Assembly (NCBI GenBank): GCA_013373595.1
Contig: JABXHO010000029.1
Coordinates: 1 to 59,664 of the forward strand
Direction of reading: 5' to 3'
Length of the DNA: 59,664 nucleotides
Source of the DNA: Flavobacteriales bacterium
Lineage (GTDB): Bacteria > Bacteroidota > Bacteroidia > Flavobacteriales_D > Crocinitomicaceae
Positions 20,001 to 38,079 of the stretch are shown here, piece by piece (within the stretch, counting starts at the first letter, position 1; the number at the start of each line of letters is the position of its first letter). Below the pieces are notes generated by a model. That model made no database searches and had not been told where the DNA came from. It saw only the letters and a list, made by a program, of their open reading frames with translations. A program made the position numbers and the translations under genes.

Positions 20001-21901
20001 TAATAAGTGACGGTTGGTCTTATTAAGATGTGTAATTTTGATTTTGCCCTCGATTTTTTTCGACTACTAAACAACCATTTAATAATTGGAATTTTAGATA
20101 AAATGGGAACCCCATTTCCAGCATCGGATTTTTGCTTTTTTTCTAAGCCTCCCAACAAAATCATTTCTCCATTCTTCACACGAACCATTGATGCAAAGCT
20201 TTGAGTTAAAACATTTGGCGGAGCAGTAGAACCCTCCACCCCTTTGAAATCATTTTGGTCAACAGAAATAGTAAGTGTAACATGCTCATCCGCACTCACA
20301 AAAGGCTTGATCGAAACACTTAAATTCGCTTCAATGGGTTTCCATTGTTGCGATTGTAACACTCCTTGATTGGTTACGGACGTCTGAACATTTACTTGAA
20401 CTTCCTGATAATACGTTGTCTCTCCAATTGAAAGCGTTGCTTCGTGCCCGTTCAATGTCGAAATCTTTGGTGTACTTTCAATATCAATAACACTATTGTT
20501 TTCCAAGGCCTGTAACGAGACATAAAAGTTCTCTGTCACTTGTCCCAAATTAACTAAACCGAAACCTGTAATTGTATTCAGAATTCCGTTAATCGACTGG
20601 GCTCCCAAGGTAACGTCAACTCCAGAACCTCCTATTGTACCAGTTGTTGGTGTTGGTGCATCTTTGATGCCCGCACTCACTCCAGTGATATAGTTCGCGC
20701 TTTTATCAGAAGTAATTAGCATTACATCAATCTGAACCATTGGCACTACGACGTCAACGGAAGAAATAAACGTTTTCAACTCATCAATTTTGCGCGCACT
20801 TCCGGTAAGAATAAGTCCATTTAACTCAACAAACTCCTTTACTTCCAAATCGGTCATCATATCGTTAGGAATTGCAGTCTTCACCGATTCAATGGTTCTG
20901 TTATTAAGTCGAATGAGCTCGGTTTTACGTAATCCCTCCACTTTATTCTCGCCTAACATATACACATCACCTTCCTTCTTGACAGAATAATTAGTTCCGT
21001 TTAATACCATTTGAGCCAGTTCATCAAAACGTACATCTGTAAGATCTAAATTCACTTTTCCTTTGATATCGGAATAAATCACGTAGCGTACTCCCGTTTC
21101 CTCGGCTGCAGCTTGAATAAAACCTTCTAAATCAACATCACGTGCGAACACATCAAGCGTCCCCACATCATTCTTCAATAAGACAAAATCGCCATTCTTG
21201 ATTTTCGATGCGTAATTATCTGGTCGCGCATTAGGTCCTGTAACAGGTTGACTTTTCTGTCCTTTACTGATCGTGTAGTAGTCTCCATTCTTTTCCAGTT
21301 CCAATTCATTCGACTTCACAAACATTTCCAACACTTGTTCATGTGGTCGATTCAAGAAATACGCATTCACCCGTTGATTCCTTACCTCTGGATCCACTAC
21401 GAAATTGAACTTAGACACCCGCGTCAGTTCTTCCATTACTTGCCACAGCGTATCATTTTTCAAGTCCATTGAAAGGAACTTATTCGCAGGATTGTACGAC
21501 ACTTCTGGTTTTCTTGGAGGCACCACCACAGGCTTCACGACGGCTTTCTCTCTTTTCTGTATCGAAATAATACTTCCTACAAATTCATATTCGATTTCAA
21601 AGTTCAAGTACAAAAACACGAGCATGTCTTTTACTTGCGCATCATAGAAATTGTAGGAAATGAGTTGGTTTAAATCTGGATCGATACTTACGTTCAAGTT
21701 ATTCTCCAAGGCAACAGAAGTGACCAACTCCGACAGTGGCAAGCCACTTACATTGAGTTGCAACTTATTGTTCAATCCTGGGTGATCTCCCGCTAGATTA
21801 TCCAAAACATCCCTTAATGTTCCTTCGGAGTATTTTTGTGCTACGGCATTCATCGTGAATCCGCAAAACAAAAGGGTTAGTATGACAAGTATTCTTTTCA
21901 T
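20000..21901 (-). CDS. Secretin (GspD/PilQ family)
   Basis: 633 residues. Signal peptide at about 1-21 (MKRILVILTLLFCGF ... AVA/QKY). Three STN/N0-N1-like domains follow (about 35-105, 140-215 and 245-315; each has a ...LDLTDVRFDELAQMVL-type strand-helix layout), then an N3-like ring-building domain with NGLILTGSARKIDELKTFI, then the secretin domain at about 455-630 with TPKISTLNGHEATLSIG, MVRVKNGEMILLGGL and VPILSKIPIIKWLF, which are signature motifs of the family. It forms the outer-membrane gate of the machine. No S-domain extension is obvious, which fits a lipoprotein or other helper for assembly. TAATG overlap with the ATPase gene. Confidence 0.93.
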   Translation of the reverse strand: MKRILVILTLLFCGFTMNAVAQKYSEGTLRDVLDNLAGDHPGLNNKLQLNVSGLPLSELVTSVALENNLNVSIDPDLNQLISYNFYDAQVKDMLVFLYLNFEIEYEFVGSIISIQKREKAVVKPVVVPPRKPEVSYNPANKFLSMDLKNDTLWQVMEELTRVSKFNFVVDPEVRNQRVNAYFLNRPHEQVLEMFVKSNELELEKNGDYYTISKGQKSQPVTGPNARPDNYASKIKNGDFVLLKNDVGTLDVFARDVDLEGFIQAAAEETGVRYVIYSDIKGKVNLDLTDVRFDELAQMVLNGTNYSVKKEGDVYMLGENKVEGLRKTELIRLNNRTIESVKTAIPNDMMTDLEVKEFVELNGLILTGSARKIDELKTFISSVDVVVPMVQIDVMLITSDKSANYITGVSAGIKDAPTPTTGTIGGSGVDVTLGAQSINGILNTITGFGLVNLGQVTENFYVSLQALENNSVIDIESTPKISTLNGHEATLSIGETTYYQEVQVNVQTSVTNQGVLQSQQWKPIEANLSVSIKPFVSADEHVTLTISVDQNDFKGVEGSTAPPNVLTQSFASMVRVKNGEMILLGGLEKKQKSDAGNGVPILSKIPIIKWLFSSRKKSRAKSKLHILIRPTVTY

Positions 21902-23310
21902 TAAATTCCAGATAGTAAAGGGTAAACTTCCTCCAAAGAGGTTGTTCCTTCTATTAAAACTTCGTAAGCGCGTGTTGCAAGATTTTTTACGCCCCGCTCT
22001 TTTAGTAATTCATCCACTTCGTGATCATTTCCTTTGATCGCCACTGCTAATTTTTGATCAATTGGGATTACTTCGTACAAGGCCATTCGTCCTTTGTAGC
22101 CCGTATAGTGACATTGATCGCACCCCACAGGGGCCATCACTTCTTTTGGTATTTCGAACCCGTCAATTGAAGGCCAATCTAAGGGATTGAGTTCTGCTTT
22201 TACCGTACAATTCGTACAGAGTTTTCGCACCAAGCGTTGTGCTACAGATGTGTTTATTGTATTGGCAAGCAAGAACGGAGGAACGCCCATATCGATCAAA
22301 CGTGAGATGGTTCCCCACGCAGAATTGGTGTGAATTGTTGACAAGACCAAGTGACCAGTTAACGCAGCGCGAATGGCCATTTGTGCTGTTTCTCCGTCAC
22401 GGATCTCCCCGAGCATGATCACATCTGGATCTTGACGCAGAAACGATCGAAGCGCGCTCGCAAATGTCAATCCGATTGATTCTTTCAGTTGCACTTGATT
22501 GATTCCATCCAAGGTATACTCGACTGGGTCTTCCACTGTAACAATATTGCGTTTCTCTTGATTGAGCAACTTCAATGTTGCGTATAAAGTCGTAGTTTTT
22601 CCCGATCCCGTCGGTCCACTAATCAAGATGATTCCATTTGGTTTTCGGACACCTTCCAAGTATTGTTTCTTCTCAACAGGAGAGAATCCTACTTTGTCTA
22701 AGCTGATGGATGAAGCATCATGTCCGAGGATACGCATTACGATTTTCTCTCCGTGTAATGTTGGGAGAATCGACACACGAATATCGAAATCCTGGTATTC
22801 AATACGGCCATCTTGTGGAAGTCGCTTTTCCGAAATATCGAGGTTTGATCGGATTTTAATCTTGTTCACCAATTCAGGATAGTCTTCCTTGGCAATAGAA
22901 AAACGTTGAATTAGGTTTCCATCAATTCGAATTCTGATTCGTGCTTTCTCACCATAAATTTCAATGTGAATATCACTACTTCCCAATCGATTTGCCTCTT
23001 GAATCAATCGATCCACGAAATCGGTATTGGCATCGAAGGAAATTTTCGCATCTTCTCCATCCGTATTGCGATAATACCTCCCCAAACTACGTTGAATAGT
23101 TTCCTTTGAGCACGTTTCCAGCTCTACCTCAATTCCCAATAAAGCCGACAACTCCTCTCGGGTAAGTTCTACATCCATTGTTTCATCGATGTAGAAAGTT
23201 ACTCCACCATCCCGTTCCGACTTAGGCAAAATTCGGTAATGCCAAGCCAAATCTGATCGGATCAACTGCTGAAGCTCTGCTTCCAATTCGATATGTTGAA
23301 GTGTTGCCAT
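21901..23310 (-). CDS. GspE/PilB-type traffic ATPase
   Basis: 469 residues. N-terminal GspE/N2 region (about 90-210, FVDRLIQEANRLGSSDIHIE), Walker A at 232-240 (GPTGSGKTT), Asp box around ATVEDPVEY-like residues 258-264, Walker B near 295-302 (PDVIMLGEIRD), His box at about 320-328 (HLVLSTIHTN). A tetra-cysteine zinc site is present (Cys365, Cys368, Cys397, Cys400: RKLCTNC and VGCDQCHYTGYKGR), as in assembly-type ATPases GspE/PilB and not in retraction PilT. It powers pseudopilus assembly at the inner membrane. No PilT gene is present in the window, so the system looks like a T2SS or non-retracting pilus. The N-terminal MshEN domain is shorter than usual. Confidence 0.95.
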   Translation of the reverse strand: MATLQHIELEAELQQLIRSDLAWHYRILPKSERDGGVTFYIDETMDVELTREELSALLGIEVELETCSKETIQRSLGRYYRNTDGEDAKISFDANTDFVDRLIQEANRLGSSDIHIEIYGEKARIRIRIDGNLIQRFSIAKEDYPELVNKIKIRSNLDISEKRLPQDGRIEYQDFDIRVSILPTLHGEKIVMRILGHDASSISLDKVGFSPVEKKQYLEGVRKPNGIILISGPTGSGKTTTLYATLKLLNQEKRNIVTVEDPVEYTLDGINQVQLKESIGLTFASALRSFLRQDPDVIMLGEIRDGETAQMAIRAALTGHLVLSTIHTNSAWGTISRLIDMGVPPFLLANTINTSVAQRLVRKLCTNCTVKAELNPLDWPSIDGFEIPKEVMAPVGCDQCHYTGYKGRMALYEVIPIDQKLAVAIKGNDHEVDELLKERGVKNLATRAYEVLIEGTTSLEEVYPLLSGI

Positions 23311-23780
23311 CAGATAAGAAGCGTTATGAATTGAAGTTGATCACTAAATGTTACATAGGCAATTCCTACAAGTGCCATATATCCAGCGTAGGGAATTGAT
23401 TTCTGCGGTTTGAACACCGTTGCAATGACGTGAAAAACCAAGGTAAGCATCGTGCCGATGGTAAAAAATAGGATGTACCAATGGAAGGAAAACAAAGGAA
23501 TCATCGCTACTAGAAACAGGATGTCTCCAATAGAAAAGAAGTCATTCGTGATATTTACGAATTCGCCAAATTTCACCGAAAGATAGAGCGTTAAACCTAA
23601 AAGTAACACGAGTAAAAAGCCCAAATTAAGAGCCATCGTTTCCCAGTTCAAGTTATCCCAGTTGAGTGCGATTGCTCCAACCAGAACCAAAGGGAATAAT
23701 ACCCAATGAATTCCTCGGAAACGCACATCTTGATAAAAACACAAGACCAAAACGGCTATGAAAGCTAATAATATGAACAT
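23310..23780 (-). CDS. Minimal prepilin peptidase (A24-like), divergent
   Basis: I place the start at the ATG at 23780, which overlaps the upstream stop as TAATG like the other genes here; a longer frame to 23828 would overlap the pseudopilin gene by 49 bases. The 156-residue product is a multi-pass membrane protein (about five helices). Two aspartates match the A24 catalytic pair: Asp18 in YQDVRFRGIHWVLFP (usual D...R.I...L) and Asp86 in FFSIGDILFLVAM (usual GxGD). An IPYAGYMALVG segment matches the IPFGPFLALG motif. The N-terminal methylase half of PilD/GspO is missing. It ends on the start of gspE (TGATG). I call it prepilin peptidase with moderate confidence; SIGD in place of GxGD is unusual. 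Confidence 0.7.
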   Translation of the reverse strand: MFILLAFIAVLVLCFYQDVRFRGIHWVLFPLVLVGAIALNWDNLNWETMALNLGFLLVLLLGLTLYLSVKFGEFVNITNDFFSIGDILFLVAMIPLFSFHWYILFFTIGTMLTLVFHVIATVFKPQKSIPYAGYMALVGIAYVTFSDQLQFITLLI

Positions 23781-24202
23781 TAGTCGGGCTGTACTTCTTT
23801 TAAGATTCCTTCTTGATCGATTTCCCAAATGTTATATTGTCCATCACCATTAAAATCCTGCACTGCTTGCGCCCTTGCTTTGAATCCTGCGGGAGATGCT
23901 TCCATGATAGAAATTTCATAAAGGGCCGTTCCATTTTGCGTGACTAACTTGTGAGGAATATAGTTGAGTTCTCTCAGGTCGGATGAGTACTTCGAATACT
24001 GCAAAAAGTAGGCGTATTCAAGGTTATGTACCATCTTCAATTCCTGTTGTGCTTCTAATGCTTTTGTTCGTGATGCCACCCCCGCTTGATTGGGAACGAC
24101 CAACATGATCAAGATTCCCATGATGGCTAATACGATTAGGATTTCGGCGAGCGAGAACGCATCCACAAATCCCTTCTTCTTATTTCTTCGTGTGAAAATC
24201 AT
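23780..24202 (-). CDS. Major pseudopilin, GspG-like
   Basis: 140 residues. Short basic leader (MIFTRRNKKKGFVDA) and the class III signal with Glu at +5: DA/FSLAEILIVLAIMGILIML, so Ala15 is at -1 where glycine is usual, Phe16 is +1 and Glu20 is +5. The hydrophobic helix (16-37) is followed by a GspG-like globular region. Near the end, Asp116-Glu127 (DFNGDGQYNIWE) fits an EF-hand/dockerin-like calcium loop, and calcium binding is known in GspG pseudopilins. ATGA overlap with gspF and TAATG overlap with the peptidase gene. The only pseudopilin on this side of gspF, so likely the main subunit. Confidence 0.85.
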   Translation of the reverse strand: MIFTRRNKKKGFVDAFSLAEILIVLAIMGILIMLVVPNQAGVASRTKALEAQQELKMVHNLEYAYFLQYSKYSSDLRELNYIPHKLVTQNGTALYEISIMEASPAGFKARAQAVQDFNGDGQYNIWEIDQEGILKEVQPD

Positions 24203-25278
24203 TTAATAACGTTGCTAAGGTTAAACATTGGCATGTACATGGAAATCATAATAACTCCCACGACCAAACCAATAATTACTATAATGAGCGGTTCGATAAT
24301 CGTTCCGATCAGTTTGGTTTTATATTCTATGTCTTCTTGATACTGTTTCGAGATCCGCTCGAAAGTAGTGTCTAGTTGGTTGATCTCTTCGGCAATTTTG
24401 GTTAGGGAGATCAATCGTTTGTCAAAAATAGGAAATTTCGCCAAGCCTTGGTGAAATGAATCTCCCTTCATGATGTCTTGTTTGATTTCTTTGATTGCCG
24501 ATTCAATGGGATAAAAGCCGATCATTTCCTCAACGAGAGACAATGCAGTTACGAGTGGTGTTTTTGCTCCGAGCAATAAAGCCAGACTTTGACACATTCG
24601 TGCGGTGTACACCTTTTTCATTAATACCCCAAAAATGGGAAGGCGAAGAATGATTTTTGACGTGATGTTTCGGAATCCATCTTCCTTGCGTTGGGTGTAA
24701 CCATAAATTACAATTGCTCCTACAGCGAGCAAGAAGTACATCATAAACGTGGAAAAGTTCTTCGAAAGCGCAATGATTTTCTTCGTTAGGTACGGAAGTT
24801 CTTGTCCAAATTGCTTAAAGACATCTTCAAACATCGGAACAACGCTATTCAACATAAAGTACAAAACCCCAATCGTAATCAGAATTACAAAACTAGGATA
24901 AGTGAATACGCTAATCAGTTGGCGACGGAGCTTCACTTTGTTGGTGAAATAATCTGCCATGTGCCCTAAAATGATTTGGAGTCGACCCGTTTCTTCTCCA
25001 ATGCGAATACTTTGGTACTCGTACGCCGAAAAATGCCCAGTTTTTTCCAAGGCTTCTCCGAGTGAACTTCCTCCTACGAGGTCCTTCAAAATGGATGTAA
25101 GAATTGCGTGGATGCGTTTACTTTCTTGCTCTTCAATCAAAATAGACAAGGCCCGTTGAATGTCAATTCCACTTTCCAGCAGCGAGCTAAACTCCATGTA
25201 GAAGTTCTCTTTTGCTTTGTCGGGAAAGGCTTTGCCTAATTTAATCTCCCGTTGAAATATGGATTGTTGTTCAGTCAT
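24199..25278 (-). CDS. GspF/PilC-type inner-membrane platform protein
   Basis: 359 residues with the family layout of two homologous cytoplasmic helical domains and three membrane segments (about 148-170, 195-212 and 330-352). The signatures are visible: FYMEFSSLLESGIDIQRAL near 26-45 with LGEALEKTGHFSAYEY, and the second repeat MCQSLALLLGAKTPLVTAL. The conserved end reads EPLIIVIIGLVVGVIMISMYMPMFNL. The protein couples the ATPase to the pseudopilus at the inner membrane. ATGA overlaps at both ends tie it to the pseudopilin genes. Confidence 0.95.
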   Translation of the reverse strand: MTEQQSIFQREIKLGKAFPDKAKENFYMEFSSLLESGIDIQRALSILIEEQESKRIHAILTSILKDLVGGSSLGEALEKTGHFSAYEYQSIRIGEETGRLQIILGHMADYFTNKVKLRRQLISVFTYPSFVILITIGVLYFMLNSVVPMFEDVFKQFGQELPYLTKKIIALSKNFSTFMMYFLLAVGAIVIYGYTQRKEDGFRNITSKIILRLPIFGVLMKKVYTARMCQSLALLLGAKTPLVTALSLVEEMIGFYPIESAIKEIKQDIMKGDSFHQGLAKFPIFDKRLISLTKIAEEINQLDTTFERISKQYQEDIEYKTKLIGTIIEPLIIVIIGLVVGVIMISMYMPMFNLSNVIK

Positions 25279-25751
25279 TCTAAATGCGCAAAATAGTCGT
25301 TGATTTTATTCTTTACATCTGGCTCAAAGTAATAGCTCAATGTCATCAAGTCGCCTTTCCATTTAAAGTCGAAAATAACGGTAGTTTTCTCATCTACTTC
25401 CTCCAAACGTATAGATTCCGCCTTTGTTTTAGTGTCTTGCCAATCAAAACCTGTTGATCGCATCACGTTTTCTTCTTCCAACTTGTATCTGATCACCTTG
25501 TTGTTCTCGAAGAGAAGTAACTCACCACCTTGTGAATTAATGGAATCACATGAATACAACTCCGACCAAAGATTCGATCGGAAAGCAAACCACTCATTGA
25601 GTTCTTGATTGATGTCTCCCGTCATTTTCAACTGCTCATTGAAACGATTTACGGAAACGGCAATGAGACCGATCAAAACGCCCATAATCGCAAGCACGAC
25701 GGTTACTTCAAAAATGGTGAATGCCTCGATATGTTGTTTTTTTCTACTCAA
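25275..25751 (-). CDS. Pseudopilin (GspH/I/J-type minor subunit)
   Basis: 158 residues. Leader MSRKKQHIEA is followed by FTIFEVTVVLAIMGVLIGL: Ala10 at -1, Phe11 at +1 and Glu15 at +5 define a type III signal with alanine instead of glycine. The globular domain is about 120 residues with a CDSINSQGGELLLF stretch and is probably a beta-rich minor pseudopilin. It starts eight bases inside the previous gene's end and ends with an ATGA overlap onto gspF. Which minor pseudopilin (H, I or J) cannot be told from the sequence alone. Confidence 0.85.
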   Translation of the reverse strand: MSRKKQHIEAFTIFEVTVVLAIMGVLIGLIAVSVNRFNEQLKMTGDINQELNEWFAFRSNLWSELYSCDSINSQGGELLLFENNKVIRYKLEEENVMRSTGFDWQDTKTKAESIRLEEVDEKTTVIFDFKWKGDLMTLSYYFEPDVKNKINDYFAHLE

Positions 25752-26064
25752 CCCACCAATCTTGTTTAAGAATTACTTTTCCATCTTCTCCGGTAAATAC
25801 CAACCGTTCAATTGAATCGTTATCGGTTGATTCTCGTTCCAATTTGATGTTTTCGATATCGTCGAATTCATGCTCCATCATGAACAAATGCTTCCACAAC
25901 TGCGATTGAATTTCCGTTTGCGTTCGCACTTCCTGAAAATTGACAGTAGACTTTGTCGACCGCACGAATACCAGCGAGGCAATGCCAATGCACAAAGCGA
26001 TTACCGAAATCGCAATCACAACTTCCGCAATACTCGATGCTGGTAATTTTCGCTTCAGAAGCAT
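25744..26064 (-). CDS. Small pseudopilin (GspI/H-like minor subunit)
   Basis: I choose the ATG at 26064 (106 residues), giving a short basic leader MLLKRKLPA and a ten-base overlap with the upstream gene; a start at 26106 would add 14 residues and a 52-base overlap. The processing region is A/SSIAEVVIAISVIALCIG, with Ala9 at -1 and Glu14 at +5. The hydrophobic helix is followed by a short domain of about 75 residues, which is small for a pseudopilin and closest to GspI in size. Coupled to both neighbours. Confidence 0.75.
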   Translation of the reverse strand: MLLKRKLPASSIAEVVIAISVIALCIGIASLVFVRSTKSTVNFQEVRTQTEIQSQLWKHLFMMEHEFDDIENIKLERESTDNDSIERLVFTGEDGKVILKQDWWVE

Positions 26065-27299
26065 GCAATCAATTTTGGTTTTATCACTTTTTCTTCTTTG
26101 AGCCAATTCGGCACAATCATTTCCTTTGGAAGTAAATCGGATGAAATACGGACGTTCAACAAATGATTCGTGTACTGTCCTCCTCCCGCTCGAAGCGTGA
26201 ATTTATTCGTGTATAGATGTCCAATTACATCCCCTTTCAACTCTGTTTCTCCGAGGTTGTACACCAGTCCTCCAATTCGACCTTTCTCCATTTTAAGAAG
26301 CAAGAGTTTTCTCGAATTTGGCTTTTGCGAAAATAGCAGCACTCCTCCCAGCACTTGCGATCCCTCTTCCAGAAAGATTCCATGTTTATCTGAAGTTTCG
26401 TTCCTTCCTTCTTCATGAAGAATCAATGCGGAGGGATAATTCAATTTCACCTTTTTGCCTAGCCGAATGGTTTCGTGTGCCACCACTTGAACCGCACCTG
26501 AAAAACCATCCTCGAAACGCACATTTGGCGCAACGATAATTACATTTTCCAATTGACAATTCGCCTTCACGACAATGGTATCGAAACTGTGTAGCACGAC
26601 ATTCCCTGAAATTTTATGGTTCAAATAAAGTTGAGATGTCACACTTACCAAGCGTGTTTTCTCACTAAAGGAAAAGTTGGTGTCGCGGTCAATCGGATCA
26701 ATTTTGACACAATTCTTGCGGTATTTTTGAATGTTTTCCGTTTTCAAACTGGACTTCAACCCTGGCAAAGAACGCTCACTTAATTTTTGCTTTCCATAAA
26801 TGAGTTTGTCGCCTTTGTATGATTGTCTGGCAATATGTCCACGTTCGGCTCCGCGTTCTCCCAAAAACGCGACTCCTTCAATGCGTGTTTCTCCGCAAAG
26901 TTTGAGTGACTGCTTTCTCTCTGGGATATACAACGCGGGATGTGAATGATCCGTTTCGTATCCAACTATGGCTGATCTTTTCACGGTACCGACCTTGTGT
27001 CTTGTTTCTGAGACGATCACGCGAAATGCTCCCCAGTCGCGGCGGGTAATCACTGAGGTATCGCCCGAAGCATGAATGAGTTCCTGTCTTCCATTCGATT
27101 GAGATCGTGCACCATGAAGTAGGGCGAAATAGTTATTCATCAGAAGGTGCTCCTTCATGTTGTGGTGTCGCTCCAACCGTTTGTTCGCACTGGAAATAAA
27201 CAATACGCCACTCGCCACCAAACCAATCAATAGCATGAATGAGATGGCATAGCCAAGCGCTGAGCTTGAAACTCGTTTAGACAGTGGGAGTTGAGACAT
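26055..27299 (-). CDS. GspK/PilX-like protein with a beta-helix-like body
   Basis: 414 residues. The N-terminus (SKRVSSSALGYAISFMLLIG) is pseudopilin-like with Ala14 as possible -1 residue and no Glu at +5, which is typical of GspK. The hydrophobic stretch is about 15-36. The body is unlike GspK: residues about 225-390 form a run of short repeating strands (GNVVLHSFDTIVVKANCQ, ENVIIVAPNVRFEDGF, AVQVVAHETIRLG, GRIGGLVYNLGETELKG, GDVIGHLYTNKF) resembling a bactofilin or right-handed beta-helix. It begins directly after the MORN gene stop (TAA then ATG). Likely the tip or cap subunit of the pseudopilus; structure prediction would be decisive. Confidence 0.7.
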   Translation of the reverse strand: MSQLPLSKRVSSSALGYAISFMLLIGLVASGVLFISSANKRLERHHNMKEHLLMNNYFALLHGARSQSNGRQELIHASGDTSVITRRDWGAFRVIVSETRHKVGTVKRSAIVGYETDHSHPALYIPERKQSLKLCGETRIEGVAFLGERGAERGHIARQSYKGDKLIYGKQKLSERSLPGLKSSLKTENIQKYRKNCVKIDPIDRDTNFSFSEKTRLVSVTSQLYLNHKISGNVVLHSFDTIVVKANCQLENVIIVAPNVRFEDGFSGAVQVVAHETIRLGKKVKLNYPSALILHEEGRNETSDKHGIFLEEGSQVLGGVLLFSQKPNSRKLLLLKMEKGRIGGLVYNLGETELKGDVIGHLYTNKFTLRAGGGQYTNHLLNVRISSDLLPKEMIVPNWLKEEKVIKPKLIACF

Positions 27300-30042: not shown

Positions 30043-33000
30043 TTACAGTTTAACCATTTTTGCTTTAGCAAGGATTTCATCTGCCGTTTGAATAGACAAC
30101 GAATAAACTCCTCGGGTTAATGAACTGATGTCGATATTTTGTACACCATGTTGGTAGTTCAACGAATACGCAGCAACACGTTTTCCTGCCATATCGTATA
30201 CCACCAATTCAGCCTCCAAATCTTCTGCGATCGAATAATCGAACTGAACAAAATCATTGGCTGGATTCGGATAAACAGTAAATGTTGCTTGATCCACCTC
30301 TTGAACTTCAATATTTGATAGGTGTTTTGGCGTTAATGTTGGGAAGAACGTGCGCTCATTTGCAACTCCAAATTGATACAAAACACTTTTGGCAATATGC
30401 ACATGCTTAGCGTCACTTGAAACAATTTCATTAAGAATCGCAATCTGCGCTCCGCTTAAAACATCGTTTGCTTCAATTTGAATCTTCTTGATCTCAATCA
30501 AATCTGCCTCATTTGCATCTTGAGGAACAATCGACACGAGTGCTGCCAAAGCAGTAGTATACTCTTCTGCTAAGATTGAGTAATTGTATTCAAACCACTT
30601 TGCATCGTTTCCAGTCAGTAGATTCTGAGCGGAAACTTCGTTGTAAAACACGTCTACATCTGACGCATTCTTTTCATTCAAAGTATGCAAAATATAAATT
30701 AGTGACTCTTTAGACATCCCTTGTAACTTGCTTTGGTATCCATTTACCAAACCATCGTGCGCTACAATTCCATCTCCTTGATTAGACAGGTGATCACACG
30801 TATCGAAACCTCCGATGGATGAATTAGACATATCTACTTGATGACCACATGACGCTGTAGAATTAACATTGTTACCATTGATACTCACACCGCCAGACAC
30901 GAAGTTTACACCAAAATTCCCGAAGGAAGTGAGCGGAGGATTGTCCGTCGCAATATCTGCGATAACTCCCAATCCATTATTGGTAATGAATGAATTTCTT
31001 CCTGCTCCTGCAGAGGGGCTTGAACTCGAACCAACGTCGCCCGTCATATTGACCATTTCCATACCGTATGTTGTATAGTTGTACATGTAATTATTCATCA
31101 ATAAAGGCAGGTTTGAAGGCATGACATTTAATCCCTCAAAATACATAGCGGTGTTTGCTTCAAACACACAGTTGGTCGTGATCTCTGTGGTGTTGTTCGA
31201 CTCCCCAATTGCGAAGTAACCGATTCCCACAGCATTTCCTCCTGATACCAATTCCATATTAATCGTGTTACACGAAACAGATGTTACGATTGGATTATTC
31301 AAGTAAACTCCGTAGATATAACAGTTGTTAATTTCGTTATCTGTTACATAAGTATTGCGCAAGTTTTCCAGTTGAATACCCGTTTCGAAACCTTCGATAT
31401 AGTTTTCTTTAATGTCATGCAATTGGCCACCATCACAGTAAATAGCTGAGTTGTTACCCGACCATGAAGCAACTCCCTGTTGAGTTGTATTCACTATTTC
31501 ATTTCCGCTAATCAAAACTGACTGACATGATTCTGAAGCAATCTGGTGCTCATATCCTTGGAAGACATGCGTCACATCAATATTATTTGATTCCACTTTC
31601 GCGTTAATCTCTCCATGTAAAAGGATCGCTCGGAATGTATTAGCAAAATTGTTCGAATTTAATGAAAGGTCTATTCCATTTCGTGATTCGAAACCTGTGA
31701 AGTTTGTTGCTTCATATGCAGGCGCAATGAAATCATTTTGAGTAATTGACTCAAGGTATGTCATGCCACTGCTGTAAATCCCGAAGTATTCTCCAACAAC
31801 TCCCCAAGAACAAGCTGATCCTTCGAATAATGGCATCGCGCCATCTATAAGAAAGGTGTTTCCGGTAATGCTTCTTACGAATGTAGCCTTATCGAGGTAA
31901 ACTCCAGCTTTACAATTCGCGAAAAGGTTGTTTGTCATTCGTAAATCAACCTGCTTCTGATCATGTGCTTTAATTGCAAAATGTGCATTCTTAAATGTAC
32001 ACTCATTCACAATTCCCTTCGGTTCAGTTGGGGCAGGGTCTGCCTGTGGGTTTTCAACATAAAAGTCAATTCCTCTCCACGTTTGATTCAAGTCACAAGG
32101 ACGGAAAACCGAGTTATTTGCTCTCAATGTTGCTCCATCAATCACATCAATTCCGGCACACTCGCCAAATACAACATCAACATTGGTTACATCAAGAATA
32201 GCATTCTCAACTGTTACGGTTACTCCATCAGCAATGTACACTTTGTTGTCCCATGCCATATCTGTTGTAATCGTAACGTCGCTGCTATAAATTAGGGATG
32301 CATTTCCTGCTGTCACGTAACAACAGTCATCCAACTCCCCTATTTCGAGCCAATTCGATAAGATATTACATCCATTTGCCATTTCTACTTCGAGGTAATA
32401 GATTCCCGGTTGATTCACGGTAATGTTTGTACTCCCAATTACAGGGTTAAACGTTACACCGCCATCCGCACTGTAATACCAACTGTAAGACAAAGTTCCG
32501 ATTCCTAAGTCATCAATATCTGAGTCAATTAAAAGATCTTGTCCTGGACAGATTGAATCTTCTAAAGAAGAAATTTCAGCAGACCATGCAGGCATCGTGA
32601 TGAACTGAGGAAAGTTCAATCCGACTACATTACTTTGAGTATAGTATGACGTTTGGATCGATGCGTTGAACGCAGGTGTGCCTGCCGATAAATCGGGCTC
32701 ACCAATTCTACCAATAAACGTTGCCGTTGGAGTATTTACACTTGCTCCAGTCCAGTAGGCATAGTATACATCTCCATCTGGCCCCAGTTTGATCCCACTA
32801 AGTCTGGTTTGATCGAGTGGTAAGGATTGAACTGCTGCCGTTCCCAAAACAATGTCGTACTGAAAAATATTTCCGTTAGGCGCGTTCCATTCACTCGTGC
32901 TGTAATAGAGCATTCTCCCACTTGGTGAATATTCTACACATACCTCCTTAGAAGTCGTAGAAGCAAGATCAACAACCATCACTACATCTGTAGGACTTGT

Positions 33001-33870
33001 TGAGATTCGTGTACCAGGTGCTGCAGAAGTACTTGCGTTAAACAAGGTAGTAACTACCATTCCATTGGTACTGTCAAACTGAGCATCAGTAGCTGCAAAT
33101 TCTCCAAACGCTCCTACTCCAGAACGCTGGCTTTGAACTGTGTAAGCAAAATTCCCTACCCCCGCAGCTGGATTACCAAACGTATACACTTCTGGAAGGC
33201 TGATTCCTGATGGTGAAATTGTGTACACTCTATAGTTTGCTGTTCCGTAAGTTCTTGTTACTAGATAAAAAGTCAGTGGGTCATCCGAACTTGGGATGAG
33301 GATCATTCCTTCTGTTACATTTACATTTCCTGGATCAGTACCTAGAATAGGTAAATTTTGAGTCGGTCCAAAAGTCCCCGCAATGTGATTGTACATTCTG
33401 TAAGTAACAGGTCCTGTTACAGCACTAGATGTAGGGTTGGAGAAAATATAAAAGGTGCTATCATCATCACAATCTGGATTGGGCAGAATAACAGCTGGTT
33501 GTGTTCCTGAAGGATGTCCCCCAAGTCCAGAACCTGGTGTAATATCATTATGCACAGCATCATAGACACGATCCCCATCGGTATAAAACATTAATTGTCC
33601 TGATTGAGGATGCGTTGCTACAGCCGTTCCTTCCCATCCAAGTTGAACATTATCCGCAGAGGTAATATCTGTAGGAATACTTGAGTTGGTTGAGTTGCTA
33701 AAGGTTCCTCCAACTGGAGCTATTCCTGAAGGTGCGCTAAAATCGAGCATAATCGGTATGCCATTCGCTGGACTTCCATGAAACCCGAAGATCCAATAGT
33801 CTTTTTCGTGTTGTGCAAAGGATGAATGCGCGATAAGCAGCAACATCCCTAAAAAGGTAAGTAACTTCAT
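30043..33870 (-). CDS. T9SS-exported right-handed beta-helix surface protein (1275 aa)
   Basis: Signal peptide MKLLTFLGMLLLIAHSSFA/QH. Residues about 20-430 are a propeller-like region common in Bacteroidota surface proteins (KDYWIFGFHGSPAN, GQLMFYTDGDRVYD, PSGRMLYYSTSEWN). An Ig/PKD-like module lies near 435-515 (SICPGQDLLIDSD ... YSWYYSADGG), then a right-handed parallel beta-helix of many NxF/I repeats at about 525-1020 (TGNTFLIDGAMP, SNNIDVTHVF, ENYIEGFETGIQLEN). The C-terminus is a T9SS type A sorting domain (FTVYPNPANDFVQFDYS ... AKAKMVKL). Cysteines in the central part may form disulfides. The gene is preceded by a putative LytTR-controlled promoter and followed by a terminator, so it is a single-gene unit. 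Confidence 0.9.
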   Translation of the reverse strand: MKLLTFLGMLLLIAHSSFAQHEKDYWIFGFHGSPANGIPIMLDFSAPSGIAPVGGTFSNSTNSSIPTDITSADNVQLGWEGTAVATHPQSGQLMFYTDGDRVYDAVHNDITPGSGLGGHPSGTQPAVILPNPDCDDDSTFYIFSNPTSSAVTGPVTYRMYNHIAGTFGPTQNLPILGTDPGNVNVTEGMILIPSSDDPLTFYLVTRTYGTANYRVYTISPSGISLPEVYTFGNPAAGVGNFAYTVQSQRSGVGAFGEFAATDAQFDSTNGMVVTTLFNASTSAAPGTRISTSPTDVVMVVDLASTTSKEVCVEYSPSGRMLYYSTSEWNAPNGNIFQYDIVLGTAAVQSLPLDQTRLSGIKLGPDGDVYYAYWTGASVNTPTATFIGRIGEPDLSAGTPAFNASIQTSYYTQSNVVGLNFPQFITMPAWSAEISSLEDSICPGQDLLIDSDIDDLGIGTLSYSWYYSADGGVTFNPVIGSTNITVNQPGIYYLEVEMANGCNILSNWLEIGELDDCCYVTAGNASLIYSSDVTITTDMAWDNKVYIADGVTVTVENAILDVTNVDVVFGECAGIDVIDGATLRANNSVFRPCDLNQTWRGIDFYVENPQADPAPTEPKGIVNECTFKNAHFAIKAHDQKQVDLRMTNNLFANCKAGVYLDKATFVRSITGNTFLIDGAMPLFEGSACSWGVVGEYFGIYSSGMTYLESITQNDFIAPAYEATNFTGFESRNGIDLSLNSNNFANTFRAILLHGEINAKVESNNIDVTHVFQGYEHQIASESCQSVLISGNEIVNTTQQGVASWSGNNSAIYCDGGQLHDIKENYIEGFETGIQLENLRNTYVTDNEINNCYIYGVYLNNPIVTSVSCNTINMELVSGGNAVGIGYFAIGESNNTTEITTNCVFEANTAMYFEGLNVMPSNLPLLMNNYMYNYTTYGMEMVNMTGDVGSSSSPSAGAGRNSFITNNGLGVIADIATDNPPLTSFGNFGVNFVSGGVSINGNNVNSTASCGHQVDMSNSSIGGFDTCDHLSNQGDGIVAHDGLVNGYQSKLQGMSKESLIYILHTLNEKNASDVDVFYNEVSAQNLLTGNDAKWFEYNYSILAEEYTTALAALVSIVPQDANEADLIEIKKIQIEANDVLSGAQIAILNEIVSSDAKHVHIAKSVLYQFGVANERTFFPTLTPKHLSNIEVQEVDQATFTVYPNPANDFVQFDYSIAEDLEAELVVYDMAGKRVAAYSLNYQHGVQNIDISSLTRGVYSLSIQTADEILAKAKMVKL

Positions 33871-33894
33871 AATGATTAGATTTAATTGTTTCCA

Positions 33895-33999
33895 TAAACC
33901 TATTCATTTATAATTACTGAAGTGTAGGTGGTTTTGCCGTTTACTCGGTCTCATTTTGTGAAACACCGTTCTCATTTTATGACGTCCTGTTCAGTTTGA
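33895..33999 (-). promoter_or_regulatory. Putative LytTR operator and promoter of the beta-helix protein gene (module A)
   Basis: Two 13-base direct repeats, TCTCATTTTGTGA (33949-33961) and TCTCATTTTATGA (33970-33982), repeat with a 21-base period (two helical turns). Their cores TCATTTTGT and TCATTTTAT each match the LytTR consensus [TA][AC][CA]GTTN[AG][TG] in 8 of 9 positions and are 12 bases apart, the spacing expected for this regulator family. A third near match TCAGTTTGA lies at 33991-33999. On the minus strand a -7-like TAGGTTTA is at 33895-33902, 56 bases from the first repeat. The ATG follows at 33870. The regulator is presumably the LytTR protein encoded at 34389-35105. Confidence 0.6.
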
Positions 34000-34043
34000 A
34001 CGCTCAGTGCGGGACACACTGACAATAAACAACTTATCATTAA

Positions 34044-34077
34044 AAACAAAAAAAAGCAACCGTCTCCAATTGCTTTT
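34044..34077 (-). terminator. Rho-independent terminator ending the candidate ncRNA / LytTR operon
   Basis: Minus-strand arms AAAAGCAA (34077-34070) and TTGCTTTT (34059-34052) with a 10-base loop, followed by a long T run (TTTTTTTTGTTTTTA on the minus strand). This is one of the clearest terminators in the window and lies about 310 bases past the LytTR stop, which is why a separate transcript between them is considered. Confidence 0.8.
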
Positions 34078-34302
34078 CTATCGAAGGAAATTTATCCTTC
34101 TAGGTTTAGTTGTGGTCAGGTTATAATTGTGATTAAAGTTAACTCGGTTTGGCAGTCATTCAATTTAGTTTACCACTTCTACATAAGTAACTACAACTGA
34201 TCTTCGTACGATCTTGAACAAAATGATCTCGGTACGAACTGCCAAAAATTTCCGAATTGAATTCTCTATAATTTAACCCGTATGAAAACGATCACTATCG
34301 CT
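34044..34302 (-). ncRNA. Candidate structured non-coding RNA controlled by LytTR pair 2
   Basis: The minus strand from about 34302 to 34044 has a -7 box upstream (TAGTTTTG, 34308-34315), no open frame longer than about nine codons, several predicted stems, and a terminator at the end. Stems: TTCGTAC (34203-34209) with GTACGAA (34232-34238), extended by GATC (34210-34213) with GATC (34225-34228); an enclosing 9-base pair set TTTGGCAGT (34148-34156) with ACTGCCAAA (34238-34246); and GAAGGA / TTCCTTC near 34082-34101 just before the terminator. Size would be about 255 bases. It could equally be the 3' UTR of the LytTR operon. No family match is claimed. Confidence 0.4.
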
Positions 34303-34307
34303 TGCTT

Positions 34308-34394
34308 CAAAACTAATGAAGGATAAAGAAATAAATCGGTCAGTTTTGCGAAGAACGACCTCTCGATTTGTGAAACACCCGTTTCAGTTTATGA
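34308..34394 (-). promoter_or_regulatory. Putative LytTR operator and promoter of the candidate ncRNA (module B)
   Basis: Direct repeats TCTCGATTTGTGA (34361-34373) and TTTCAGTTTATGA (34382-34394) have the same 21-base period as module A; the 34-base block is 28/34 identical to module A. The core TCAGTTTAT (34384-34392) is a perfect LytTR consensus match and TCGATTTGT (34363-34371) matches 7 of 9. A further near match TCAGTTTTG lies at 34340-34348, and GTTTTGC sits exactly 20 bases before the first core in both modules. On the minus strand TAGTTTTG (34308-34315) is a perfect -7 box, 55 bases from the first core versus 56 in module A. The distal repeat overlaps the LytTR stop codon. Confidence 0.55.
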
Positions 34395-35105
34395 AAGCAA
34401 TGTGCTAATCCTCAAAATGATTTCTTCTCTTCGGTCTGGAGAGATCGGCACTTCGATTCCATCCTTCATGAGTAAGAATCCTCCTTCGGAACGAACAAGC
34501 TCTTCTACGTGATAAAGGTTCGCAAGATAGGAACGATGAACACGCATAAAGTGCTCTTCTCCGAGTTGCTCCGAAACGAATTTCAGGTTTTTGGAGACGA
34601 GTATGGTTGTAGATTCTCTGAGCGTAAGTTCGGCGTAGCTTCCCTCTGCTTTTACACAAATGATTTGTTCTTTGTCAATGAACTGTGTTCCATTGGAGCT
34701 AGGCAATACCAGCTTATTGCCGTGAGAAGAACTTTTCGAATCGGTTTTTGTTTGAGCTTTTAATCGTTGTACGGTGTCTTTCACCTCCTTGATATCAACA
34801 GGTTTCAAAATGTAATCGAATACGCTAAACTTAAACGCCTTCTGCATGTATTCTTTGTGCGCCGTCACAAGAACAAATTTACACGAATGACTTTCTAGAT
34901 TTTCCAACAAATCAAAACCTGTTCCGCCTGGCATCTGTACATCGAGAAAAACAACATCCGCTTCAAGTTTTCCAATCAATGATGCTCCTTTGATCACATT
35001 TTCGGCTTGTCCAATCACTTTGACACCTTCACAATGATTTTCAAGAATAATCTGAAGGTTTTCTCGCTGGTTCAATTCATCATCAATAATTATCGCTCTT
35101 AACAT
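34389..35105 (-). CDS. LytTR-family response regulator (pair 2)
   Basis: 238 residues. Receiver domain with Asp8/Asp9, phospho-acceptor Asp55 (VVFLDVQMPGGTG), a Thr in LVTAHKEYM and Lys in FDYILKPVD. LytTR domain at about 140-236 (IICVKAEGSYAELTL ... FMRVHRSYLANLYHV). The gene overlaps the end of its sensor kinase by 23 bases. It closes a run of minus-strand genes for a T9SS adhesin system. Two near-identical LytTR-type operators flank the region just downstream, one overlapping this stop codon, so it probably controls the beta-helix T9SS protein and the candidate ncRNA. Confidence 0.95.
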   Translation of the reverse strand: MLRAIIIDDELNQRENLQIILENHCEGVKVIGQAENVIKGASLIGKLEADVVFLDVQMPGGTGFDLLENLESHSCKFVLVTAHKEYMQKAFKFSVFDYILKPVDIKEVKDTVQRLKAQTKTDSKSSSHGNKLVLPSSNGTQFIDKEQIICVKAEGSYAELTLRESTTILVSKNLKFVSEQLGEEHFMRVHRSYLANLYHVEELVRSEGGFLLMKDGIEVPISPDRREEIILRISTLLS

Positions 35106-38079
35106 CTTTTCGAATTATAGGTAAGGAAAATCGAACAATCGTGCCACCGCCAACGCGCGGACTCAATTGTAATAAAGGTAACTTGTTTGGCTTATTGCCT
35201 TGGAGTTTATGGAGTAATTGAATCCGTTCGTGGGCAAGCGAAATCCCGTGTGATTTGTGTTCGGTCATGTCCGACTTTAATCCTACTCCATCATCTTCAA
35301 TAATGCATTGAATGGTATCTCCCAGCTGCTCGAACTTCATCATAATATGTCCTTCTCCTTCTTTTATCCCTACTCCATGTTTAATCGCATTTTCCAAGAA
35401 CGGTTGCGCAATAAAGGGAGGGATAAAAATTAATTCGGGAGAAGCCACATTATCTGCTTGAATCTCGAAGGTAAACTTACCGACCATTCGTTTTTGCTCA
35501 AGAAGCAAGTAATTTTCCATCAGTGTCATTTCCTCCGTTAACGGAATCAGCTCCATTCGTGAAGCTTCCAGACCAGAACGAAGAAACCTAGAAAAATCAA
35601 CTATGTATTCGTTTGCCTTTTCTGCATCGCCTTTGAGAATACTATTTTGTAAAGAGCCCATGGCATTGAAGACAAAGTGTGGGTTGAGCTGCTGCGTGAG
35701 TGCTACTTGCTGCAACTCAATAATTCTATTTTTCACTTTCTCCTTCGCCTTCAACCTATCCAAGCGCCAGCGGACAATCAGGAAAATGACTACAATTAGA
35801 AGGGCAACTATCAAAAGACGGAACCACGCAGTACCCCAAAATGGTGGATGCACCTGAAAATTAATCGGCTGAGCAACCATCCAATGTTTTCCGTCTGTTG
35901 AGGCTTCAAGTTGAAAGGAATACTCTCCAGGAGGCAAGTCGGTATAATTAGCAAAGCGCTCAGTTGTAACACTCCAAGGATTAGACGAGCCAATCTTGTA
36001 TCGAAAATAAACTGGTTCTCCTGAAAATGACACAGCATCAAACTCGAAGCGTAAATCACTTTCCGTGTACTTAAGCTCGAATGGTTTCACTCCCATTTGG
36101 CGACCTCCAACAATTACTCCTTTCGAATATATTTTAAGATTTGAGGGTGTGGGTGCATTAAAACTAGTAATTCGGCGTGCCCCGGTGTTTGTCGCAAGAT
36201 AAATTGTATCGTTGATAATATTGCAGTCCGATATTTTCTCGCACGAAAGATCATTAGAAGTAATATCCCTGATCACATGAACTCGGTTTCCATCGAAATC
36301 GACCAACGACATTCCCTTATGACTGACCAACCAAAATTGATTGTCCTTTTTATGAATGATTTTAAATATGAAATTCCTACGGAGTCCATTGCTGCTTGTA
36401 AAGTGCCGAAGCGTATCCCCCAAGACCCAAATCCCATCGCCATGTGTAGCAAAGTAGGTAACACCGTTGGGAGCTTTTAAAACATTGACAGCTCTCCCTC
36501 TGAGCTCTGGTTGGCTTGGTTCACTGAGTTCACCTGTGTTTATGTTCAAAATAGAAGTGCTACGGAAATTAGAAATCCATAAATGATCGTCATCATAGAT
36601 TTCCAATGCGCGGACGCCTGTTTTCACTTCAATTGGTATACGACTACTATTTAAAAAGCTAACACCATATCGGGTACCAACGATGTATACATTGGACTTC
36701 CATTTTTTCACCTCATACGCCACACGATGAAATTTTGAAGCATTTGTTTCGATCGCTTCTACATCATTGAGGTAGTACAAGGGGTGTGTACCATCAGAAT
36801 ATTTTATGAAATCAGAAAATACCGCCAACTCTCCATTTGGCAAAGACAATAGACTCTTTGAGCTATTAAAACTTCGATCGATCTCTAACGTTTTTAGGTT
36901 AAGAGCATTGATGGTAGTATAAGAACGTAAGAGCAAATGGTTTTTAACTTTAACAATTGAATGTACAGGTTTCGATCCGCTCTCTGAATTCAAGCTTTCT
37001 AGTTTCAAGTTTTGAATTTGAAACAATCCTTCATCGAGCGTTGATAACCAAATACTACCATCTGTTGTTTGCGCAATATCTGAGATCGTTTTATCTCGAA
37101 AAAAATGTTCCTCGGAAACAATTGTGCCATTGTCTAGCCTCAAGCGTTTTACTCCCGCTTTCGAAAAACCCAGCCAAACATCATTATTGATGAGCGCGAT
37201 GGTAAGAATTTGCTCGTCGAAAGTGTACACGCTAGATTTGTCCCCCTCAATGACCCATAATTCTTTGTTCAAAGCGACGTACGACGTTTCTTGATGGTGA
37301 AGCAGCTCAAAGCTCATTCCCAAAACAAACTTCTCTTTATGCGTTACTTTATCGTTCCTAAACTCAATATTCTCTTGAGTACTTGGTACTATTTCAGCGT
37401 TTTGCTTACTATGTACAACATGTTGTTTGACCAATGAAAACACGAGGGATTTATCATCGTTCGAGTGAACGTTTTCAGCATCGAAGATTCCAACTTCTCC
37501 CTGATCACTGATTGTAAACGTTCCCAGTTCAAGCGTTGACAACACGATGTTTCCTTCAAAAAGGAATTGATCGTGATACCGAAAAAACGCTGGTTGAATC
37601 TCTTTAAGTTTACTGTTGTACTTAAATGGCTTTACTTTTCCATCTTCTAAAAAATACAACTCTGGAATATTTGAAAAGAACCAAATTCTACCTTGCTTGT
37701 CTTCTAGAATATCGTACACCGTATTACTTCCCAAGCCGTCGTTTGTGGTAATTACATCAAAAGAATGCCCATTGTATTTCGCTACGCCATGATCGGTTGC
37801 CACCCAAACATATCCTTTGGAGTCTTGAAATGTGCTGTAACATTCCATACTCGGGAGGCCATCGTTGACAGTAAAGGTTTTATTTACGGGATTCCAGTAT
37901 TGTGCTGGCACTTGTCCAAAAACCGAATGGAAAATAATTGCACAAAAGAAGAAAAAGAGAACAGGTTGCACTTTCAGAAAATACACCTTTTCAAACCATA
38001 CTTGTATGCGATTTTTCAAACTCTTTTTCAATTTATTTGGTTGAATAAAGATATTATGTTTTACACAATAATTACACAC
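35083..38079 (-). CDS. Beta-propeller sensor histidine kinase, LytS/YehU type (pair 2)
   Basis: 998 residues. The first 38 residues are a long basic region, then a hydrophobic segment (VLFFFFCAIIFHSVFG/Q); a downstream non-ATG start is possible. Propeller blades occupy about 60-650 (GLPSMECYSTFQDSKGYVWV, GVAKYNGHSFDV, GLGSNTVYDILEDKQGRIWF), a Y_Y_Y-type domain about 675-740, one membrane helix about 748-768 (WFRLLIVALLIVVIFLIVRW). The kinase core has about His801 (QQLNPHFVFNAMGSL), N-box QPFLENAIKHGV and DDGVGL. It transmits an outside signal to the LytTR protein encoded next. It starts 22 bases after the phosphopantetheinyl transferase gene. Confidence 0.95.
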   Translation of the reverse strand: MCNYCVKHNIFIQPNKLKKSLKNRIQVWFEKVYFLKVQPVLFFFFCAIIFHSVFGQVPAQYWNPVNKTFTVNDGLPSMECYSTFQDSKGYVWVATDHGVAKYNGHSFDVITTNDGLGSNTVYDILEDKQGRIWFFSNIPELYFLEDGKVKPFKYNSKLKEIQPAFFRYHDQFLFEGNIVLSTLELGTFTISDQGEVGIFDAENVHSNDDKSLVFSLVKQHVVHSKQNAEIVPSTQENIEFRNDKVTHKEKFVLGMSFELLHHQETSYVALNKELWVIEGDKSSVYTFDEQILTIALINNDVWLGFSKAGVKRLRLDNGTIVSEEHFFRDKTISDIAQTTDGSIWLSTLDEGLFQIQNLKLESLNSESGSKPVHSIVKVKNHLLLRSYTTINALNLKTLEIDRSFNSSKSLLSLPNGELAVFSDFIKYSDGTHPLYYLNDVEAIETNASKFHRVAYEVKKWKSNVYIVGTRYGVSFLNSSRIPIEVKTGVRALEIYDDDHLWISNFRSTSILNINTGELSEPSQPELRGRAVNVLKAPNGVTYFATHGDGIWVLGDTLRHFTSSNGLRRNFIFKIIHKKDNQFWLVSHKGMSLVDFDGNRVHVIRDITSNDLSCEKISDCNIINDTIYLATNTGARRITSFNAPTPSNLKIYSKGVIVGGRQMGVKPFELKYTESDLRFEFDAVSFSGEPVYFRYKIGSSNPWSVTTERFANYTDLPPGEYSFQLEASTDGKHWMVAQPINFQVHPPFWGTAWFRLLIVALLIVVIFLIVRWRLDRLKAKEKVKNRIIELQQVALTQQLNPHFVFNAMGSLQNSILKGDAEKANEYIVDFSRFLRSGLEASRMELIPLTEEMTLMENYLLLEQKRMVGKFTFEIQADNVASPELIFIPPFIAQPFLENAIKHGVGIKEGEGHIMMKFEQLGDTIQCIIEDDGVGLKSDMTEHKSHGISLAHERIQLLHKLQGNKPNKLPLLQLSPRVGGGTIVRFSLPIIRKDVKSDNY

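What the first reader, a model, noticed from the sequence alone, without database searches (positions are those of the whole stretch)
33928..34394. Two near-identical LytTR-type operator modules with matching promoter spacing
The sequence shows two 34-base blocks (33949-33982 and 34361-34394), 28/34 identical, each made of two 13-base direct repeats with a 21-base period. The cores fit the LytTR consensus as I recall it, [TA][AC][CA]GTTN[AG][TG], with 12 bases between cores; one core (34384-34392) is perfect. In both, a GTTTTGC lies exactly 20 bases from the first core and a -7-like box (TAGGTTTA / TAGTTTTG) is 56 or 55 bases away on the minus strand. The LytTR gene lies beside module B. I infer that pair 2 controls both downstream transcripts.
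Basis: partly seen in the sequence, partly recalled or inferred. Interest (0 to 1): 0.72.

Follow-up and report, generated by a model that had tools for sequence, protein, structure and literature searches.

The report
LytTR switch controlling protein and RNA
Two matching DNA landing pads for a LytTR-type response regulator sit in front of a gene for a secreted surface protein and in front of what looks like a small non-coding RNA, and related marine bacteria carry a similar regulator, landing pad and conserved RNA that the RNA library searched does not contain.

Summary
The two 34-base modules are 28/34 identical; shuffles of the same stretch reach at most 24 (0 of 500). In the 4.69-Mb genome the only sites within 2 mismatches of TTCAYAAAnTSA-N9-TTCAYAAAnTSA are these two. 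Comparison supports the LytTR-operator reading: in 68 loci taken as Bacteroidota, direct repeats within 300 bases of the LytTR gene have period 21 in 10 loci, 20 in one, and the 25 other periods tested total four. TTCAYAAAnTSA pairs recur in flavobacterial LytTR loci, mostly at period 20.

One point changes. Module A precedes a type IX-sorted surface-protein gene, but module B, overlapping the LytTR stop codon, precedes a ~250-nt stretch with no ATG frame above six codons and an intrinsic terminator: a candidate small RNA. Its fold without the terminator is only moderate; no relative was found.

The layout recurs in the host's genus: a paralogous LytTR gene, 21-base repeats (27 of 41 upstream regions), then a covarying structured RNA (model R1) seen in seven genera of one family, without Rfam match in five loci tested. 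The window RNA is not R1. Binding, transcription and RNA function are untested.

The parts
33949..33982 (-). Module A: tandem LytTR-type half-sites, 21-base period; sense-strand half-sites TTCAYAAAnTSA-like at 33983-33972 and 33962-33951
33991..33999 (+). possible third, distal half-site of module A (8/9 to the recalled consensus), 19 bases from the second core, so out of the 21-base register
   Evidence: inference
33895..33902 (-). -7-like box TAGGTTTA of the module A promoter; predicted +1 near 33890 (centre of proximal core about -65), about 20-base leader
   Evidence: sequence; -7 box at -12 to -5 in F. psychrophilum from a passage of PMC9723704
30043..33870 (-). Target of module A: 1275-aa protein with a type IX secretion C-terminal sorting domain
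34361..34394 (-). Module B: tandem LytTR-type half-sites, 21-base period; overlaps the stop codon of the LytTR gene
   Evidence: inference
34308..34315 (-). -7-like box TAGTTTTG (fits TAnnTTTG) of the module B promoter; predicted +1 near 34303 (proximal core about -64)
   Evidence: sequence; box position from a passage of PMC9723704
34048..34303 (-). Candidate small non-coding RNA, about 250 nt; no ATG-started frame above 6 codons, longest other-start frame 26 codons
34050..34079 (-). Intrinsic-terminator-like hairpin (13 pairs, 3 of them G-C) followed by a U run, ending the candidate RNA
   Evidence: 1 found, 0.2 expected
34389..35105 (-). LytTR response regulator (receiver + LytTR domain), presumed to bind modules A and B
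35083..38079 (-). Partner sensor kinase: regulator-propeller repeat, Y_Y_Y domain, His_kinase; HATPase_c just below its cut-off

Best explanation
Modules A and B are tandem half-site operators of the LytTR response regulator encoded at 34389-35105. When the propeller-type kinase (35083-38079) phosphorylates it, the regulator binds as a dimer across the two half-sites, two helical turns apart on one face of the DNA, with the promoter-proximal half-site near -64/-65, and recruits RNA polymerase with the Bacteroidota housekeeping sigma factor to two weak promoters that have a -7 box but no -33 box that I can recognise. From module A this makes the mRNA of a type IX-secreted surface protein; from module B it makes a terminated ~250-nt non-coding RNA encoded between the regulator gene and the surface-protein gene. 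Shown: modules, spacing, terminator-like hairpin, lack of a plausible reading frame, uniqueness in the genome, recurrence of 20/21-base tandem repeats beside other Bacteroidota LytTR genes. Inferred: binding, activation rather than repression, start sites, that the RNA is made, and that it acts as an RNA.
For: 28/34 identity against a shuffle maximum of 24; only these two sites in the genome with <= 1 mismatch, the next four at 3, reversed control none. Within 300 bases of LytTR genes in 68 loci taken as Bacteroidota: period 21 in 10 loci, period 20 in 1, the other 25 periods of 14-40 together in 4. TTCAYAAAnTSA pairs in 128 LytTR-bearing stretches: 32 rows at period 20, 6 at 21, at most 6 at any other period of 13-40; motif read backwards: at most 4. 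Other RR genes are directly followed by such repeats and then a further gene: L042 (repeat two bases after the stop codon, next gene looks exported), L039, L040, L155. In the host's genus a paralogous LytTR gene is followed by 21-base repeats and a conserved structured RNA; 27 of 41 distinct regions upstream of that RNA have a >= 8/9 repeat at period 21, other periods of 14-33 at most 2. Terminator. Known systems in which a regulator of this kind drives a small RNA: FasA-FasX, AgrA-RNAIII, VirR-VR-RNA (passages; that FasA and VirR are LytTR-type is recalled).
Against: No expression or binding data. No close orthologue in the other 239 family genomes searched, so neither the modules nor the RNA can be tested by phylogenetic footprinting. 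Without its terminator the RNA body folds only moderately better than shuffles (z -2.1; 62 control folds from 31 intergenic stretches have median -0.8, and 8 of the 62 lie at or below -3). TTCAYAAAnTSA pairs elsewhere are mostly 20, not 21, bases apart; the period-21 count (6, two of them the window's) does not exceed periods 15 and 27; the motif was partly drawn from the loci counted, and some loci are near-copies of each other. Over all 109 loci, periods 14 and 24 also gave 13 rows each. 14 of 41 R1 upstream regions fall below 8/9 at period 21, the own-genome copy (L132) at 6/9. A relative of the surface protein in G044 (51% over residues 531-1275) has neither a LytTR gene nor a 21-base repeat nearby.
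Confidence: 0.7

Rival explanations
1. The modules are LytTR operators, but the 250-nt stretch behind module B is a decayed intergenic region or an untranslated leader, not a functional RNA.
For: RNA body fold is only moderate (z -2.1); no relative of the stretch in the other 33 genus genomes (other hits are pieces of 16-44 bases, best E 5.5e-4); the nearest coding target downstream of B is the surface-protein gene.
Against: A 13-pair terminator-like hairpin with U run lies between the stretch and module A, and module A already gives the surface gene its own promoter; module B has the better -7 box; LytTR-associated RNAs at this very position exist in the genus.
Confidence: 0.25
2. The modules bind another regulator (another of the 21 LytTR-domain matches of this genome, or a different family), not the neighbouring one.
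For: The genome has 21 LytTR-domain matches, and the adjacent regulator has no orthologues with which to show co-inheritance.
Against: Only two such modules exist in the genome and both lie within 0.5 kb of this regulator gene; several other LytTR genes have different repeats of the same period beside them.
Confidence: 0.15
3. The 34-base repeat is a recent duplication without regulatory meaning.
For: The two copies are 412 bases apart start to start and alike.
Against: Similarity is largely confined to the half-sites, the stretch between them and the GTTTTGC, while the distance to the -7 boxes is kept within one base (read); a like motif with a 20-21-base period recurs in other LytTR loci.
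Confidence: 0.05

Closest known systems
FasBCA-FasX of Streptococcus pyogenes (PMC12675982; abstract sentences and passages seen)
   Same: Signalling locus with a ComE-like regulator (LytTR-type as recalled), a putative operator upstream of the promoter of a small RNA encoded in the same locus, the RNA being the main output
   Different: Different phylum, kinase arrangement and sequence; FasX function is proven; here a second operator serves a surface-protein gene directly
agr P2/P3 and RNAIII of Staphylococcus aureus (PMC4227749; passages seen)
   Same: LytTR regulator as a dimer on two direct repeats, promoter-proximal repeats centred near -60, one output being an RNA; here about -64/-65
   Different: Divergent promoters, peptide quorum sensing, other half-site sequence
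VirR boxes, pfoA and VR-RNA of Clostridium perfringens (PMC2838878; passages seen)
   Same: Paired imperfect direct repeats (34 positions in that paper's matrix) upstream of exported-protein genes; the regulon includes a regulatory RNA gene
   Different: Half-site sequence, phylum, promoter type; VR-RNA is shown to act
LytTR-R1 RNA unit of the window's family, described here (no Rfam 15 match at E <= 1 in five R1-bearing loci)
   Same: Bacteroidota LytTR gene followed by 21-base repeats, a -7-like box and a structured RNA with a terminator-like hairpin; present in the same genome at contig C43
   Different: Regulator only about 33-39% identical; operator ATRTTCATT; proximal repeat about 45-50, not 64, bases before the RNA; RNA unrelated by model search

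Membership tests
LytTR (AlgR/AgrA/LytR) operators | two direct half-sites about two helical turns apart (9-base cores, 12 between; recalled) | tested here: met
   exact 21-base period in both modules; peak at 21 in other LytTR loci
LytTR (AlgR/AgrA/LytR) operators | fit to the consensus [TA][AC][CA]GTTN[AG][TG] (recalled) | tested here: inconclusive
   7/9, 8/9, 8/9, 9/9; but 90 perfect cores in the window
LytTR (AlgR/AgrA/LytR) operators | cognate LytTR regulator encoded nearby | tested here: met
   Response_reg + LytTR protein at 34389-35105
LytTR (AlgR/AgrA/LytR) operators | bound by the regulator, promoter activity depends on it | not testable with these tools
   needs EMSA/footprint and reporter
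Bacteroidota sigma-A promoter | -7 box TAnnTTTG at -12 to -5 | tested here: inconclusive
   TAGTTTTG at B fits; TAGGTTTA at A departs at the last base; start sites unknown (box definition)
LytTR-controlled small RNA | own promoter-like box and terminator, no plausible coding frame | tested here: met
LytTR-controlled small RNA | conserved or exceptional RNA structure | tested here: inconclusive
   z -3.9 with terminator, -2.1 without; no relatives for covariation
R1 RNA family (defined here) | match to covariance model R1 | tested here: not met
   best score on 33800-34700 is 14.8 bits, E 0.038, at 33836-33941, across the surface-gene start and not in the module B transcript; genome hits score 69-162 bits

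The most novel reading that the evidence does not exclude
LytTR two-component systems of Bacteroidota often act through an adjacent small RNA, a FasX/RNAIII-like design that my limited paper searches did not find in this phylum. In this family two unrelated RNAs sit behind two paralogous regulators in one genome: the window RNA, and R1, a structured RNA with an almost invariant ~50-nt core, preceded by 21-base repeats even in genera where no LytTR gene lies next to it. The window regulator would thus set a surface protein directly and other targets through RNA.
Probability: 0.5. Interest if true: 0.7.

Novelty: new variant of a known kind. Interest (0 to 1): 0.55.

Why it matters
This genome alone has 21 LytTR-domain matches, and the two paper searches that paired LytTR with Bacteroidetes (listings only) showed no title on their binding sites. 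A simple rule, tandem half-sites 20-21 bases apart beside or just behind the regulator gene, would let one read the target of such systems from sequence. The R1 RNA is a concrete, testable candidate RNA family with a candidate transcription factor.

Tried and rejected
Close orthologues of the window LytTR protein: none at E <= 1e-50 in the other 33 genus genomes, none at 1e-54 in the other 239 family genomes (up to 11 candidates scored per genome), best 38% among the 80 loci kept from genome contigs. DNA relatives of the candidate RNA: other hits are pieces of 16-44 bases, best E 5.5e-4, in 34 genomes. Rfam on 33500-34800: one hit at E 0.86, far below its cut-off. Module pattern in 240 family genomes: 9 matches (3 own) against 2 for the reversed control; of the six outside, two lie in stretches with a LytTR gene: L191, where TTTCATAAA repeats lie outside the predicted frames, and L193, between a kinase fragment and the LytTR gene but within a short predicted frame; so no general regulon. 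Pair 1 of the window (12988-16682): no 11/13 repeat at periods 15-35 in its gap. Surface-protein relative in G044: no LytTR gene, no 21-base repeat in 14 kb. Idea that the window RNA is a diverged R1: rejected. R1 in 39 named LytTR loci: none at E <= 0.1. L163 has R1 and the adjacent LytTR gene but no clear 21-base repeat.

Full report
What is there. The window is one contig (C106) of a 4.69-Mb, 179-contig genome. On the minus strand lie, in order, a propeller-type sensor kinase (35083-38079), a LytTR response regulator (34389-35105) and, after a 518-base gap, a 1275-aa protein with a type IX sorting domain (30043-33870). Both modules lie in that gap, B at its regulator end (overlapping the regulator's stop codon), A about 80 bases before the surface-protein gene. 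Their 28/34 identity is beyond chance (shuffle maximum 24, 0 of 500 reach 28). In the window, at up to 3 mismatches, the tandem pattern matches only these two sites, and 100 shuffles give none. In the genome, matches to TTCAYAAAnTSA-N9-TTCAYAAAnTSA are these two with one mismatch each and four with three; the reversed control gives none. The regulon visible in this genome is thus these two promoters.

Reading direction and geometry. Read in the sense of the presumed transcripts (minus strand), the half-sites are TTCATAAACTGA and TTCACAAATCGA (B), GTCATAAAATGA and TTCACAAAATGA (A). The classical LytTR consensus, as recalled, reads on the other strand; since the window contains 90 perfect consensus cores, consensus fit is no argument and the tandem spacing is. 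The promoter-proximal half-site is then centred about -64 and -65; AgrA's promoter-proximal repeats are placed at about -60 (passage of PMC4227749). I see no clear -33 box at either promoter (my reading), as one would expect of an activated promoter.

Is the 20-21-base period a LytTR property in this phylum? In a first count over 109 LytTR loci of many phyla, period 21 gave 23 rows and period 20 gave 10; periods 14 and 24 gave 13 each, the others at most 8. Restricting to 68 loci that I took to be Bacteroidota and to 300 bases around the LytTR gene removed most of the noise: 10 loci at 21, one at 20, four at the other 25 periods together; farther out, 7 loci at 20, 3 at 21 and at most 3 at any other. 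The repeats differ in sequence from system to system but keep the period. Several lie directly behind the regulator gene, as module B does: L155 in the same genome, six genus loci, L039, L040 and L042, the last with the repeat two bases after the stop codon and a gene for a protein that looks exported next. A second count used the half-site TTCAYAAAnTSA, which I had drawn from the window and from L055, L059, L064, L100 and L110: 32 rows at period 20 and 6 at 21, against at most 6 at any other period and at most 4 for the reversed motif, in 128 stretches. Leaving out those five loci, 20 rows remain at period 20; some of the rest are near-copies (L056 and L060). At period 21 the count (6, two of them the window's own) is not above periods 15 and 27 (6 each). 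Eight of the 32 period-20 pairs lie about 80 bases upstream of the LytTR gene, in flavobacterial loci.

What module B controls. Between its predicted start (34303) and the terminator there is no ATG frame above 6 codons and no other-start frame above 26. A 13-pair hairpin with a U run ends the stretch at 34079-34050 (0.2 expected in shuffles). The 260-nt fold has z -3.9, but much of that is the terminator: without it z is -2.1 on the sense strand and -1.8 on the other, with 62 control folds (31 intergenic stretches of this genome, both strands) at median -0.8, eight of them at or below -3. So promoter-like box, terminator and lack of frame speak for a small RNA; structure alone does not.

The parallel in relatives. 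The relatives of this regulator listed for the genus (29-39% identical) include a different, conserved LytTR protein (78-87% identical between L016 and ten tested loci in four genera). Directly behind its gene lie ATRTTCATT repeats 21 bases apart, a TAnnTTTG-like box, then an RNA with P1, a variable P2, a CUGC/GCAG hairpin, an almost invariant core and a terminator-like hairpin. Of 41 distinct upstream regions, 27 have a >= 8/9 repeat at period 21 and no other period of 14-33 has more than 2; the 14 below include the window's own genome (L132, 6/9). In loci where no LytTR gene was matched within about 1.5 kb (L164, L165, L170, L171, L186-L190) the repeats are still there (L165 reaches only 7/9), which ties operator to RNA rather than to the regulator gene; L163 is the reverse case, with gene and RNA but no clear repeat. 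An alignment of 31 sequences (L025, L028 and L171 were skipped because the script found no P1) gives 41 cells with changes on both sides against 13.5 in shuffles, 0 of 500 as high; 7 pairs with such a change against 4.5, 14 of 500 as high; all five measures fall on sliding. Six of the seven pairs are in P1; the hairpin and core hardly vary, so they say little. Folded singly, P1 and the hairpin appear in 31 of 31 and P2 in 30 of 31. A covariance model, R1, hits 9 of 395 class genomes at E <= 0.001, all in the window's family, while at least three family members lack a hit under strict filters. The core pattern hits 19 of 299 order genomes, all in that family, in 5 genera; together seven genera. 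Among 18 genomes behind named loci, 5 have it, among them records titled Fluviicola sp. NORP8 and Crocinitomicaceae ALOHA_ZT_7 and ZT_8; another titled Crocinitomicaceae (behind L054) has no hit. Rfam has no match at E <= 1 in the six loci tried, five of which bear R1. The window's own genome has R1 on contig C43 behind its own LytTR gene. The window RNA is not R1.

Identity of the host. Contig numbers, neighbouring coordinates and sizes of genus members agree with those of genomes behind named loci (for example C158 and C285), so the genus includes records called Crocinitomicaceae; this is an inference.

Comparison. FasBCAX is the closest design: a ComE-like regulator acting, as its authors propose, exclusively at the promoter of the small RNA in its own locus (passages of PMC12675982). 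AgrA-RNAIII and VirR-VR-RNA combine RNA and protein targets (passages), as the two modules here would. The design is therefore known in Bacillota; the searches (open-licence PMC papers; two returned nothing, of the others I read listings only) showed no report of it for Bacteroidota. A conserved flavobacterial small RNA, Rfp18, is described in PMC9723704 (passages); its relation to R1 was not tested.

Verdict. Observation confirmed; interpretation as LytTR operators supported by comparison but not by experiment; the second transcript is most likely a small RNA. The larger gain is the recurring rule and the R1 RNA.

Noticed in passing
L132:1921-2082 (G000 contig C43, 50619-50780) and 30 further distinct sequences: R1: conserved structured RNA, in the genus directly behind a LytTR gene, near-invariant core, covarying P1, in seven genera of one family, no Rfam match in five R1-bearing loci tested
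   Followed up: partly
window 16869-27299: Type II secretion/type IV pilus-like cluster (secretin 20000-21901, T2SSE ATPase 21901-23310, T2SSF 24199-25278; further small pseudopilin-like proteins judged by eye) next to LytTR pair 1, in a bacterium that also has type IX secretion genes
   Followed up: no
L155:4938-4993 (G000 contig C43, about 25.74-25.79 kb): Another LytTR gene of the same genome is followed at once by GTTAAATAA repeats 21 bases apart before the next gene
   Followed up: partly
L039 and L040, about 1930-2130: Three tandem ACCGTTAAC-type repeats 21 bases apart behind a LytTR gene and before a large gene whose product looks exported
   Followed up: no
L145:7618-7700: GTCGGTGAATGGT-like repeats (periods 21 and 30) upstream of genes leading to a LytTR gene
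   Followed up: no
window 33991-33999 and 34340-34348: Possible third half-sites, out of the 21-base register; some R1 operators (L188-L190) also show three repeats
   Followed up: partly
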